Part shown: piece by piece, positions 38,400 through 41,707 of the stretch
How the letters are laid out: each line of letters opens with the position of its first letter
How positions within the stretch are numbered: the first letter of the stretch is position 1
Assembly (NCBI GenBank): GCA_016874755.1
Contig: VGTH01000046.1
Coordinates: 1-46,134 of the forward strand
Length of the DNA: 46,134 nt
Reading direction: 5' to 3'
Source of the DNA: Deltaproteobacteria bacterium
Lineage (GTDB): Bacteria > Desulfobacterota > Binatia > UBA9968
The notes under the pieces: generated by a model
The model's database searches: none
What the model was told of the DNA's origin: nothing
The model's input: only the letters and a program-made list of their open reading frames with translations
Translations under genes and position numbers: made by a program

Positions 38400-38723
38400 C
38401 TATTTTTGGAAGGCGGCTTTGAGCATCGGTTCGAGCTCGCCGCGCTGATGCAACTCATGGAGTATGTCACAGCCGCCGACGAACTTGCCGTCGATATAAA
38501 TTTGCGGAATCGTCGGCCAATTGGAGTAGCGCTTGATGCCCTCGCGCACCGCCGGGTCGGCCAGCACATCTTCGCTGGCGAAGGGAAAGCCGTAGGATTT
38601 GAGGATTTCCACCGTGTGCGCCGAAAAGCCGCACTGCGGAAAATCCGGCGTTCCCTTCATGTAGAGCATCACTTTGTTGTTTTTGACCTTGTCGTCGATC
38701 TTGGAAAAGACTTCTTCAGCCAT
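38400..38723 (-). CDS. grxD: monothiol glutaredoxin (Grx4/GrxD type)
   Basis: CGFS-type monothiol glutaredoxin, 107 residues, the carrier of [2Fe-2S] clusters that pairs with BolA. The active site CGFS lies in FPQCGFSAHTVEIL; KNNKVMLYMKGTPDFP binds glutathione, TIPQIYIDGKFVGGCD follows, and WPTIP holds the cis-Pro loop. Length and motifs are textbook for the family. The BolA gene is directly upstream on the same strand (18 nt), and the pair is followed on the chromosome by a probable selenoprotein redoxin, giving a redox/iron-sulfur cluster of genes. Confidence 0.94.
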   Translation of the reverse strand: MAEEVFSKIDDKVKNNKVMLYMKGTPDFPQCGFSAHTVEILKSYGFPFASEDVLADPAVREGIKRYSNWPTIPQIYIDGKFVGGCDILHELHQRGELEPMLKAAFQK

Positions 38724-38741: not shown

Positions 38742-38999
38742 TTAGGCGCCCAATTTTTCCCACTGCACTGGACTATAGGTCTTTAACGCTAGCGCATGGA
38801 TGCGCTGGTCCGCCAACGGCTCTTTCAGCGCGTCGTTCACCATCCGATGCTGTTCGAGCAAGCCCTTGCCGTCAAAGGCCGGCGAAACGATGATCAACTG
38901 CCAATGATCGCCGCCACCGGTGAGGTCCTGGGTTTCGATCAATTGCACCGGCAGGCTCTTGCCGACGATCTGTTTTATCTCTTCAGGTGTAATCCCCAT
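38742..38999 (-). CDS. BolA family protein
   Basis: BolA-like protein of 85 residues. The N-terminal helix EEIKQIVGKSLPVQLIET, strand HWQLIIVSPAFDGKGLLEQH and conserved RMVNDALKEPLADQRIHALA match the BolA/IbaG group; the conserved His (QHRMV) can ligate the [2Fe-2S] cluster shared with monothiol glutaredoxin. The linkage to the GrxD gene downstream supports a partnership in iron-sulfur trafficking or iron sensing. The ATG at 38999 has no clear RBS. Confidence 0.92.
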   Translation of the reverse strand: MGITPEEIKQIVGKSLPVQLIETQDLTGGGDHWQLIIVSPAFDGKGLLEQHRMVNDALKEPLADQRIHALALKTYSPVQWEKLGA

Positions 39000-39087: not shown

Positions 39088-39591
39088 CTATCCCTCGGGC
39101 CCGAGGAAATCGGGGCGAACCATGCGTAGCATGGCGCGCATGTCGGCGCGCAGTTCATCGAGTGTCGGCCGGCCAAGATACCAATAGCCGTTGTATAGAT
39201 TATGAATCGTTAGATCGGGCAGCAGCGAAAACGTGTGCGGCATGGCGGTCACACCCTGCGTCTTCGAGGTTTCCGTCATGTCGAGCAGGGTGACGACTTT
39301 GCGATCTTGATCGCTCAAGAACGGGTATTTGGCACCCAGTCCGGTGCGAAAGGCGTCGTTGACGATCGGCGCATCGACGCTGCATACCGCTAGTTTGCAA
39401 TAGTTCACCGCCAGCTCTTCTTGAAGTTCAACGTAGTGGCGCAACTGCACCTGGCATTTCCCTCACCAGTAGCCACGATAAAATGTCAGGATAAAGGGGA
39501 ATTTCCCCACTAATGAAGACAGCTTGACCGCCTGTCCATCCTGATCCGGCAGCTCAATGTCAGGGAACTTCTGGCCGATTTTCAGGTTCAT
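39088..39591 (-). CDS. peroxiredoxin/thioredoxin-like selenoprotein (UxxC), TGA as Sec
   Basis: Read through one in-frame TGA (39463-39465), this is a 167-residue AhpC/TSA-type redoxin. It starts MNLKIGQKFPDIELPDQDGQ behind a strong RBS (GGAGGTG, 5 nt spacer), then FILTFYRGYW, TGA at codon 43, GKCQVQLRHY, and continues into the second half (YCKLAVCSVDAP, AMPHTFSLLP). The TGA sits where relatives have the active-site Cys (FYRGxWCxxC), giving U43-x-x-C46. An RNA hairpin GGTGC-AGTT-GCGCC (39438-39451) begins 11 nt after the TGA, in the SECIS position, with G in its apical loop. The true stop is TAG. Conventional gene calling would cut it at 39450. It follows BolA and GrxD on the same strand. Confidence 0.82.
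39438..39451 (-). promoter_or_regulatory. candidate bacterial SECIS hairpin
   Basis: Five-base-pair stem GGTGC / GCGCC (one T-G wobble) with tetraloop AGTT in coding sense, starting 11 nt after the in-frame TGA at 39463-39465. The position and the loop G fit SelB-binding bacterial SECIS elements such as that of E. coli fdhF. Confidence 0.6.
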
Positions 39592-39630
39592 CGTCGCACC
39601 TCCGTGTCGATTATTTGCCTGGAGGAAAAA

Positions 39631-40620
39631 CTACTGGTAGCGCCGGCCAAGCTCAGTGAAGAAACCGTCTTTCTCCAATTGCTGCAGCAAGCTTAGGTCG
39701 ACGAACTGTTCCGGCTTAGCGTTTTTTGCCTGCGCAATGGTCGGCGCCACCTCGTCGAGCAAATACTGGATGCCTTTCAAGGTGGGATAGGGCCGCTTGG
39801 ATACGCGCTTGACGAACCACTCGTAGGTCGCATCGAGCACGTCCGGCTCATTGGTGCGCATGTACTTGGCGGCGATGCGCCTGGACTCCTCTTTATTCTT
39901 GCCGATAAAGTGAATCGCCTCGACATAGGAACGGAGCGCGCTCAGCGCCGTGGCGCGCTGACTCTTGATAAAGCCGCGCGAGGTGGCAAAGCCATTGCCC
40001 TGCACTTCGATGCCCAGCTCGAGCATGTCGAAGACTTCGACCAACCCTTGACGCCGCGCCCGCGGCGTTTCCGATGGCGTAAGAATCGTGGCGTCGATGC
40101 GCCCGGTATCGACCGCCGCCAACCGTTCCATCGTCGGCCCCGCCACCACCAGCGCAACATCCTTGGTCGGTTCAAGACTAAACCGCTTCAGCAATATCAG
40201 CGCAGCATTGTGGGATGCCGAGCCGAAGCCGCTGACACCGAGCCGCTTGCCTTTGAGCTGTTCGACCCGGCTCATGCCAGGTTTGGCCACCACCGAATAG
40301 TTGTAGGAAGACTCCGACGACGCGATCAGCACGACGTCGTGGCCCTGTAGTCCCGCTTGGACGACCGTGCCGATGTTGACAATCGGCGGATCGCCGGCCA
40401 CCAGTGCCTGGGTCGCCATCTGACCGCCGCGAAAAAAGATCACTTCGGCATCAAGGCCATGGCGGCGAAAAATGCCGGCGTCCTTGGCGATCCAGATATG
40501 AATTTGATTATAGGAGATGGCCGGATAGCCTATCTTGATCTTCTTCAGCTCCTGCGCCTCCGTAACGGCGCACAACAGCCACAGAGCAAGGAATGGGACG
40601 GCGATCAACAAATGCTTCAT
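39631..40620 (-). CDS. NMT1/THI5-like ABC transporter substrate-binding protein
   Basis: Exported binding protein of 329 residues. Signal peptide LLIAVPFLALWLLCAVTEA then QELKKIKIGY. Conserved are GKRLGVSGFGSASHNAALI, LVVAGPTMERLAAVDTGRID and the ending LQQLEKDGFFTELGRRYQ. A paralogue of the proteins at 2344, 10424 and 20533. Its ATG overlaps the stop of the upstream gene (ATGA, 40617-40620), so the two are coupled. The ligand is not predictable and no permease is adjacent. Confidence 0.87.
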   Translation of the reverse strand: MKHLLIAVPFLALWLLCAVTEAQELKKIKIGYPAISYNQIHIWIAKDAGIFRRHGLDAEVIFFRGGQMATQALVAGDPPIVNIGTVVQAGLQGHDVVLIASSESSYNYSVVAKPGMSRVEQLKGKRLGVSGFGSASHNAALILLKRFSLEPTKDVALVVAGPTMERLAAVDTGRIDATILTPSETPRARRQGLVEVFDMLELGIEVQGNGFATSRGFIKSQRATALSALRSYVEAIHFIGKNKEESRRIAAKYMRTNEPDVLDATYEWFVKRVSKRPYPTLKGIQYLLDEVAPTIAQAKNAKPEQFVDLSLLQQLEKDGFFTELGRRYQ

Positions 40621-40937
40621 TTTTTGTTTTTAGTTGGTGGATTTTGCGGCGCGTTGCTGGGAACGTCTGGAACGCCAAAGGGGCTGCTTATGAACGCTGA
40701 AGTATCGACTTTTTCGCCACCGCCTTTCCTTTCCAACGCACCCATGCGTTTTTCGAGCGCTTCGATGCGGGTTTGGGTGCGTGAGAGCTGACGTTCAACG
40801 ATTTCCACCACCGAAGCAGTCGTCCCCCAAGTGCTGTACCCAATCAGCACACCTAAGCCGACGGCAAGCAGCACGCTCGCGACCATGAGGAGATAGGGAA
40901 CTCTCCTCTCCACGCTCTTTCGTTTTCGCCACGGCAT
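40617..40937 (-). CDS. small membrane-anchored coiled-coil protein
   Basis: Protein of 106 residues with a basic N terminus (PWRKRKSVERRVPY), one transmembrane helix (LLMVASVLLAVGLGVLIGYS) and a short coiled coil (VVEIVERQLSRTQTRIEALE KRM, heptad-like), then a Pro/Lys-rich tail. No family recognised. Lies between the SDR gene and the binding-protein gene, overlapping the latter by 4 nt, so it is probably transcribed with them; a role in anchoring or scaffolding is only a guess. Confidence 0.55.
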   Translation of the reverse strand: MPWRKRKSVERRVPYLLMVASVLLAVGLGVLIGYSTWGTTASVVEIVERQLSRTQTRIEALEKRMGALERKGGGEKVDTSAFISSPFGVPDVPSNAPQNPPTKNKK

Positions 40938-40960: not shown

Positions 40961-41707
40961 TTAGCCCTCCAGGTCAATTCTTGGCGACCGGGCTTCCAAC
41001 GACCTGCCGTGAACGCCCGCCGCTTTGTCTGAGGCCAAATAAACGAAGATTTCGCCAAGGGTTTCCGGCATCGGCAGGGTCAGCGGGTCTTCGTCGGGGT
41101 ACGCGGCGGCGCGCATGGCGGTGCGCGTGGCGCCCGGGTTGACCACATTCACCCGAACGCCGCTGCCCTTGAGCTCATCAGCCAACACTTGCGAAAAGCC
41201 TTCGACGCCAAATTTGGAAACCGCGTAGGCGCCCCAACGGGCCTTGCCCGTGCGTCCGACGCCGGAGCTAAGGTTGATAATCGAGCCCTGCCGCCGTGCC
41301 AGCATCGATCCCATAACCTCCCGGGTCATCAAAAATAACCCGGTGAGGTTGACGTCGATCACCTGCTGCCAAGCGCGCTCGGGATATTCGGCGATTGGCA
41401 CGCGCGGCCCGAGGATGCTCGCATTGTTCACCAAAACATCGACGGCGCCAAAGCGCACCTGCGCGGCCGCGACGATGCGCTGCACGTCGGCGATTTGGCT
41501 GATGTCACCCGCCGCGCCGTCAATCTCACCGCCCACGCCACGGATCTCATCGATGGCTGACGCGAGATCATGAGGCCCGCGCGCGCAGATAAACACCCGC
41601 GCGCCTGCTTCGACATAGCGGCGCGCAATCGCTTTGCCAATGCCGCGGCTGGCGCCGGTTAACAACGCCACCTTGCCTTTTAAACGCTCGATATCTTCGT
41701 TCGCCAT
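40961..41707 (-). CDS. SDR family oxidoreductase
   Basis: Classical SDR of 248 residues. TGASRGIGKA at 18-27 binds the cofactor, VLVNNASIL follows, then the active site IINLSSGVGRTG and YAVSKFGVEGFS (YxxxK). The C terminus is RVNVVNPGATRTAM. It resembles 3-oxoacyl-ACP reductase-like enzymes; substrate unknown. First gene of a minus-strand run with the coiled-coil protein (23 nt) and a binding protein. RBS is weak (AGGT). Divergent from the CPBP gene. Confidence 0.87.
   Translation of the reverse strand: MANEDIERLKGKVALLTGASRGIGKAIARRYVEAGARVFICARGPHDLASAIDEIRGVGGEIDGAAGDISQIADVQRIVAAAQVRFGAVDVLVNNASILGPRVPIAEYPERAWQQVIDVNLTGLFLMTREVMGSMLARRQGSIINLSSGVGRTGKARWGAYAVSKFGVEGFSQVLADELKGSGVRVNVVNPGATRTAMRAAAYPDEDPLTLPMPETLGEIFVYLASDKAAGVHGRSLEARSPRIDLEG

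What the first reader, a model, noticed from the sequence alone, without database searches (positions are those of the whole stretch)
39088..39591. Peroxiredoxin-like selenoprotein with UxxC active site next to GrxD and BolA
One frame runs from ATG 39591 (strong RBS) to TAG 39088 apart from a single TGA at codon 43. The TGA stands in FYRGYW-[TGA]-GKC, exactly where redoxins of the AhpC/TSA type have their active-site Cys. A hairpin GGTGC-AGTT-GCGCC starts 11 nt downstream, the place where a bacterial SECIS is needed. Chance coincidence of TGA, active-site position and hairpin is unlikely. Automated annotation would call a 120-residue truncated protein. The link to the glutaredoxin/BolA pair suggests a thiol and Fe-S redox module.
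Basis: partly seen in the sequence, partly recalled or inferred. Interest (0 to 1): 0.85.

Follow-up and report, generated by a model that had tools for sequence, protein, structure and literature searches.

The report
Selenium-containing redoxin beside BolA and glutaredoxin
This uncultured bacterium has what looks like a real gene for a selenium-using redox enzyme, read through a codon that usually means stop; such enzymes are a known kind, but this is a distinct subfamily that ordinary gene calling would cut in half.

Summary
Confirmed. The minus-strand frame 39591-39088 encodes a 167-residue AhpC/TSA-type protein with one in-frame TGA (39465-39463, codon 43). The genome has selA, selB, selD and tRNA-Sec. 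Of 35 genomes held for the order, 30 carry an orthologue, each match with one TGA; in the 30 loci read it lies at codon 43 or 44. Of 160 codons tested, the only five without synonymous variation are 47-51, where the hairpin GGTGCAGTTGCGCC lies, at SECIS position. All seven Cys orthologues read have Cys at the Sec column. So it is a selenoprotein, not an error or pseudogene. BolA follows on the same strand within 1.5 kb in 26 of 30 loci, within 350 nt in 20; GrxD in 19 of 30, never in family f3. Prx-like UxxC selenoproteins are already catalogued (PMC13188914, PMC2398784, passages); this is a separate, well-supported clade of that kind, under every NCBIfam cut-off listed. Unexpected: the Sec forms are all UxxC (30 of 30), the Cys forms all CxxD (7 of 7). 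Substrate, reductant and any role with BolA/GrxD are inferred.

The parts
39088..39591 (-). Sec-containing Prx-like redoxin, 167 aa with U43 (UxxC), no signal peptide apparent from the sequence
   Evidence: (PF00578 E 1.1e-20)
39463..39465 (-). Sec codon TGA (codon 43)
   Evidence: TGA in 30 of 30 orthologue loci; Cys in 7 of 7 Cys orthologues read
39438..39451 (-). apical hairpin of the SECIS element, GGTGC-AGTT-GCGCC (third base of codon 47 to first base of codon 52)
   Evidence: identical in 30 of 30; codons 47-51 are the only ones of 160 with zero synonymous entropy; loop starts 16 nt after TGA, G at loop position 2 followed by U
39422..39465 (-). possible whole SECIS region including a lower stem (weak)
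   Evidence: MFE -13.2 kcal/mol, z -1.39; the lower stem is not in the consensus fold
39598..39603 (-). ribosome-binding site GGAGGT
38742..38999 (-). BolA, next gene downstream (88 nt)
   Evidence: PF01722 E 6.3e-17; same strand downstream within 1.5 kb in 26 of 30 loci, within 350 nt in 20
38400..38723 (-). monothiol glutaredoxin of GrxD type (CGFS)
   Evidence: PF00462 E 2.7e-21; behind BolA in 19 of 30 loci
39631..40620 (-). NMT1/THI5-like substrate-binding protein, upstream neighbour
   Evidence: PF09084; upstream in several relatives
40617..40937 (-). small hypothetical protein that ends in a TGA overlapping the NMT1 start (ATGA)
40961..41707 (-). short-chain dehydrogenase, upstream neighbour
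   Evidence: PF00106 E 5.5e-62; upstream in many family-f1 relatives

Best explanation
It is a genuine bacterial selenoprotein: SelB and tRNA-Sec decode UGA-43 as selenocysteine, directed by the hairpin 11 nt downstream, to give a 167-residue soluble enzyme of the peroxiredoxin (AhpC/TSA) fold with a UxxC active site. Most likely Sec43, just before helix 44-63, attacks a peroxide to give a selenenic acid. Cys46 would then resolve it to a selenenylsulfide, which a thiol system resets; glutathione is plausible because glutathione synthetase is present. Shown by computation: Sec coding, fold class, residue conservation, conserved synteny. Inferred: peroxide as substrate, the selenenylsulfide, the reductant, and co-transcription and shared function with BolA-GrxD. 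My estimates: selenoprotein about 0.97; peroxidase rather than disulfide reductase about 0.55; functional link to BolA/GrxD about 0.35.
For: Sec machinery: tRNA-Sec 75.9 bits against cut-off 47 (ARAGORN SeC/tca), selA E 7.8e-157, selB E 6e-123, selD E 4.4e-114, with an in-frame TGA itself; selA-selB-selD adjacent on contig C16. Conservation: gene in 30 of 35 genomes of the order, 1 TGA in all 31 matching rows; in the 30 loci read the TGA is at codon 43 or 44 and no other in-frame stop occurs. Both sides of the TGA evolve as one coding frame: third-position difference rate 0.54 upstream and 0.52 downstream, second-position 0.15 and 0.16; third-position rate 0.00 in codons 47-51. Only codons 47-51 of 160 eligible have zero synonymous entropy, although GTG, CAG, TTG and CGC make up only 32, 63, 15 and 41% of their families elsewhere in these genes. 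Cys at the Sec column in 7 of 7 Cys orthologues read. Genomes with the gene have tRNA-Sec more often (24 of 30 against 1 of 5; Fisher p 0.017, relatedness ignored). TGA is also a stop in this window (10 of 37 long mechanical ORFs), so it is not a global reassignment. Fold: the 50 VIA-align rows shown are all peroxiredoxin-type entries by title (Bcp, AhpE, Prx types), Z 15.4-17.4 (AlphaFold2 mean pLDDT 79.3). Glutathione synthetase E 6.4e-119.
Against: No proof of selenium in the protein. Hairpin energy is not exceptional in its context, and the 14-nt hairpin alone (-6.5 kcal/mol) misses the -7.5 cut-off of the published model. Six gene-carrying genomes gave no tRNA-Sec match at 1e-9, one of them rated 100% complete (G009), and one genome has tRNA-Sec but not the gene (G034). 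The canonical Prx motif PxxxT(S)xxC (recalled) is absent: Gly stands at -3. The fold model rests on six sequences, and residues 108-114 have pLDDT under 50. Foldseek ranks ResA-type thiol:disulfide oxidoreductases equally high.
Confidence: 0.6

Rival explanations
1. Same selenoprotein, but working as a thioredoxin-like thiol:disulfide (or protein-selenenylsulfide) reductase rather than a peroxidase, with UxxC as the redox pair.
For: UxxC is thioredoxin-like and C46 is kept in 30 of 30 Sec forms; ResA-type structures share the top Foldseek rows; the Prx -3 Thr is replaced by Gly. The Sargasso Sea paper describes Prx-like UxxC selenoproteins as distantly Prx-related with a thioredoxin-like motif (passages of PMC1088965).
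Against: VIA-align places the model nearest peroxiredoxins. All seven Cys orthologues read lack the second Cys (CxxD), so a two-residue redox pair is not needed for the activity that the family shares.
Confidence: 0.35
2. Sec redoxin dedicated to the GrxD-BolA [2Fe-2S] system: it keeps the Grx/BolA pair or its cluster reduced, or uses GrxD as its reductant. (Not exclusive with the explanations above.)
For: BolA downstream on the same strand within 1.5 kb in 26 of 30 loci, over three families of the order, within 350 nt in 20; GrxD behind it in 19 of 30, in families f1 and f2. Two of the four loci without BolA end within 213 nt of the gene.
Against: In family f3 GrxD is not near in 7 of 7 loci, and BolA lies over 1.1 kb away in 4 of 7. 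In G007 neither is near and in G019 both are about 4 kb away. BolA and GrxD probes find nothing in L053 or L054, and none is annotated around four Cys orthologues on plasmids. Inherited gene order alone could explain neighbours in one order.
Confidence: 0.22
3. The TGA is a real stop; the downstream 120 residues are started anew at GTG48, giving a split protein.
For: GTG48 is invariant in 30 of 30, and 17 of 30 have a 4-nt Shine-Dalgarno-like match before it, 3 more a 3-nt one.
Against: 10 of 30 have no such match of 3 nt or more; CAG, TTG and CGC after the GTG are equally frozen; the Cys orthologues are one chain; the split would cut the redox centre; Sec machinery is present.
Confidence: 0.02
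4. Sequencing error or pseudogene.
For: None beyond a stop in the frame.
Against: TGA in 30 separate genomes with purifying selection on both sides.
Confidence: 0.01

Closest known systems
Prx-like thiol:disulfide oxidoreductase selenoproteins, PF00578, UxxC/UxxU (Table 1 of PMC13188914; Prx-like 1 of PMC2398784)
   Same: AhpC/TSA domain, UxxC at the Prx catalytic position, bacterial SECIS
   Different: This clade is set apart with 100/99 support from the 14 other FYRGxWU selenoproteins of the class that I sampled; I had no sequence of the catalogued type members to compare
Peroxiredoxin-like family selenoprotein, cd02970, UxxS (PMC13188914 Table 1)
   Same: Prx-like; likeness to the cd02970 group is recalled from the FYRG..C motif, not tested
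   Different: UxxC here, UxxS there
SelL-related redox protein, NCBIfam NF040769
   Same: Best NCBIfam hit, 35.2 bits
   Different: Far under the cut-off of 120 bits
Selenoperoxiredoxins with TxxU (PrxU/PrxQ type)
   Same: Same superfamily; this genome also has such genes
   Different: Motif TPGU/TPTU, not FYRGxWUxxC
Redoxin-cold-shock domain fusions of two Cyanobacteria and a Pseudomonadota MAG (L053, L118, L054)
   Same: Orthologous redoxin domain, Cys at the Sec column, 44-47% identity
   Different: Cys instead of Sec, CxxD instead of UxxC, C-terminal CSD

Membership tests
Bacterial selenoprotein | in-frame TGA conserved across orthologues, with coding on both sides | tested here: met
   30 of 30 loci; 31 of 31 rows
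Bacterial selenoprotein | Cys homologues have Cys at the TGA column | tested here: met
   7 of 7 read
Bacterial selenoprotein | host has selA, selB, selD, tRNA-Sec | tested here: met
Bacterial selenoprotein | bSECIS model: loop 3-9 nt, stem 4-16 bp, G in first two loop positions, 16-37 nt from UGA to loop | tested here: met
   loop AGUU, 5 bp, G at position 2, 16 nt
Bacterial selenoprotein | bSECIS model: MFE at most -7.5 kcal/mol | tested here: inconclusive
   -6.5 for 14 nt, -13.2 for 44 nt, -7.81 consensus of 60 columns
Bacterial selenoprotein | selenium found in the protein | not testable with these tools
   needs mass spectrometry
AhpC/TSA (PF00578) superfamily | score over Pfam cut-off | tested here: met
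   74.2 bits against 26
Classical peroxiredoxin | PxxxT(S)xxC(U) motif (recalled) | tested here: not met
   position -3 is Gly; -7 is not Pro
Classical peroxiredoxin | peroxidase activity | not testable with these tools
   needs assay
SelL-related redox protein NF040769 | score over NCBIfam cut-off | tested here: not met
   35.2 against 120 bits
Prx-like UxxC selenoproteins | PF00578 domain with UxxC | tested here: met
   type-member sequences not compared
Prx-like UxxS selenoproteins (cd02970) | UxxS motif | tested here: not met
   UxxC in 30 of 30

The most novel reading that the evidence does not exclude
In this redoxin family the selenium/sulfur swap is coupled to a switch of chemistry: Sec forms keep a resolving Cys (UxxC) and sit in a BolA-GrxD gene cluster, while Cys forms are one-Cys enzymes (CxxD), some fused to a nucleic-acid-binding cold-shock domain. 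The Sec form would be the redox arm of a dedicated BolA-monothiol-glutaredoxin Fe-S sensing module.
Probability: 0.16. Interest if true: 0.6.

Novelty: new member of a known kind. Interest (0 to 1): 0.4.

Why it matters
It is a clear selenoprotein gene that conventional ORF calling reduces to a 120-residue GTG ORF and that no NCBIfam model covers over its cut-off. It shows nucleotide-level selection on a SECIS hairpin inside a coding frame across an order. The UxxC against CxxD split gives a natural test of what the resolving Cys does when Sec replaces Cys. It also suggests a testable link between a selenoenzyme and BolA/GrxD.

Tried and rejected
Rejected: pseudogene or sequencing error; split gene restarted at GTG48; global reassignment of TGA (TGA ends 10 of 37 long mechanical ORFs; the selA ORF ends in TGA). 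Folding energy as proof of the SECIS was dropped. Covariation could not be tested because the hairpin never varies. A first tree held two wrongly framed rows (L106, L109) and one very long row (L107); I dropped these three and rebuilt. L020 (cut by its contig end) was left out of both trees and of the protein alignment A2; L039 was also not given to A2. In one search the Sec forms alone are not one clade: the two Cys orthologues fall beside family f3 with weak support (81/57), so the direction of the Sec/Cys change is open. The other FYRGxWU rows are my pick of 20 regions from the list, not a full sample.

A phylum-wide sample found no further close orthologue: 2 of 297 at E 1e-20, both inside the order. 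Outside the order the best of 23 class relatives is 8.9e-13. Plasmid records: 8 matched, 5 read; H3, H4 and H7 were not read. The 20 larger neighbourhoods were chosen by me; one search repeats the BolA/GrxD count on all 30 loci with at most 1.5 kb downstream.

Paper searches for this family: selenoprotein + Rokubacteria (1 paper), UxxC + peroxiredoxin, BolA + glutaredoxin (42, 10 of 44 listed), Binatota, groundwater/deep-Sep, Olavius/AhpC (66, 8 of 53 listed), cd02970 (76, 10 of 34 listed), and motif strings (77, 0 papers). Nothing in the listings, or in the passages of four papers that I opened, described this subfamily; supplements were not searched.

Full report
Observation. The minus strand from 39591 to 39088 reads as one 167-residue frame interrupted only by TGA at codon 43, in FYRGYW-U-GKC. 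GGAGGT precedes the ATG by 6 nt. The hairpin GGTGC-AGTT-GCGCC begins 11 nt after the TGA. Conventional ORF calling yields a 120-residue GTG ORF in this frame. The read-through protein scores 74.2 bits against the AhpC-TSA model (cut-off 26).

Selenocysteine machinery. The genome (5.56 Mb, 99.55% complete) has a tRNA-Sec of 75.9 bits (cut-off 47), called SeC/tca by ARAGORN. It also has selA, selB and selD side by side on contig C16; selD itself carries an in-frame TGA. In the order, 25 of 35 genomes have a tRNA-Sec over the cut-off. Of the 30 genomes with the gene 24 have it; of the 5 without the gene 1 has it (one-sided Fisher p 0.017, which ignores relatedness and assembly quality). Against: six gene-carrying assemblies lack a detected tRNA-Sec, one of them (G009) rated 100% complete.

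Conservation. The orthologue is found in 30 of 35 genomes of the order, and all 31 matching rows show exactly one TGA. In the 30 loci read, TGA stands at codon 43 (codon 44 in the seven f3 loci), Cys46 is kept in all, and no other in-frame stop occurs. Position-wise divergence is alike before and after the TGA (third position 0.54 and 0.52, second position 0.15 and 0.16), so both halves are under the same kind of coding selection.

The SECIS. Of 160 codons with synonymous freedom (expected entropy over 0.5 bit, at least 28 sequences), exactly five show none, and they are consecutive: 47-51. The 14-nt hairpin GGTGCAGTTGCGCC, from the third base of codon 47 to the first base of codon 52, is identical in all 30. 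Elsewhere in the same genes GTG, CAG, TTG and CGC are 32, 63, 15 and 41% of their codon families. The hairpin meets the published bacterial model (section 5 of PMC13188914, read whole) in loop size, stem, loop G followed by U, and spacing (16 nt, the lower limit). The energy criterion is met or missed depending on the length taken.

Cys orthologues and the resolving Cys. Two came from genome contigs (L053 Leptolyngbya MAG, L054 Pseudomonadota MAG, which returned 5 loci: 2 Sec forms, 2 Cys forms, 1 distant Prx with a TPGC motif). Eight plasmid records matched, of which I read 5. In all seven sequences the Sec column is Cys and the column of Cys46 is Asp. So the Sec forms are UxxC in 30 of 30 and the Cys forms CxxD in 7 of 7; four of the seven are Rhizobium/Paracoccus plasmid genes and not independent. 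L053, L054 and L118 end in a cold-shock domain. In Calothrix the gene follows a pyridine-nucleotide disulfide oxidoreductase at 83 nt.

Fold and family. AlphaFold2 from six sequences gave mean pLDDT 79.3. Residue 43 sits just before helix 44-63. Foldseek lists ResA and PrxQ/Bcp entries together; VIA-align lists peroxiredoxin-type entries in all 50 rows shown, Bcp4 first (Z 17.4, 2.9 A, 151 aligned). No NCBIfam model passes its cut-off (best SelL-related, 35.2 of 120). In a tree of 52 rows, 29 Sec forms and two Cys orthologues are set apart with 100/99 support from 14 other FYRGxWU selenoproteins of the class, three TxxU peroxiredoxins and four others; some of those rows have long branches.

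Neighbourhood. In all 30 orthologue loci (at most 1.5 kb downstream held), BolA lies downstream on the same strand in 26, within 350 nt of the gene in 20; GrxD follows in 19. Of the four without BolA, two contigs end within 213 nt (L020, L021); the others are L025 (G007) and L027 (G019). Larger stretches show neither gene near in G007 and both about 4 kb away in G019. In family f3, BolA is over 1.1 kb away in 4 of 7 loci and GrxD is absent in 7 of 7. An upstream SDR and an NMT1-type protein are also frequent. Promoter- and terminator-like sites were no more frequent than in shuffles, so co-transcription is inferred from spacing and strand only.

What is known. The 2026 review's table (passages of PMC13188914) lists Prx-like UxxC/UxxU (PF00578), redoxin UxxC (PF08534) and cd02970 UxxS selenoproteins. 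The Sargasso (PMC1088965) and GOS (PMC2398784) papers describe Prx-like UxxC families (passages seen). So the kind is known; this subfamily, its BolA/GrxD synteny and the UxxC/CxxD split were not in what I read.

Mechanism. Shown by computation: Sec coding, Prx-type fold, conserved UxxC, conserved synteny. Inferred: peroxide attack by Sec43, resolution by Cys46, reduction by a glutathione- or thioredoxin-type system (glutathione synthetase present), and any role with BolA/GrxD.

Noticed in passing
own genome, L096-L114: 10 of 19 AhpC-TSA matches carry an in-frame TGA, in active-site-like contexts (TPGU twice, TPTU twice, SPTU, WTYGUINC, YYRGIWUPYC, FGSITUP deiodinase-like, FLRHLAULPC and the target): a Sec-rich peroxiredoxin set.
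   Followed up: partly
L105 (G000:C73:15058-15339): One Prx-type selenoprotein candidate (SPTU) also has a TAA in the matched frame; it may be decayed or misassembled.
   Followed up: no
L048, selD: selD itself has an in-frame TGA near its start (SelD selenoprotein candidate).
   Followed up: no
L053, L054, L118: Redoxin fused to a C-terminal cold-shock domain in two Cyanobacteria and a Pseudomonadota MAG.
   Followed up: partly
L118:2505-4825: Calothrix plasmid: FAD/pyridine-nucleotide disulfide oxidoreductase directly before the Cys orthologue, a candidate reductase.
   Followed up: no
L086 and L095: A Sec/Cys pair (FFRGHWUPYC and FFRGHWCPYC) that groups with 100/100 support in two families of the class, a likely Sec/Cys exchange.
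   Followed up: no
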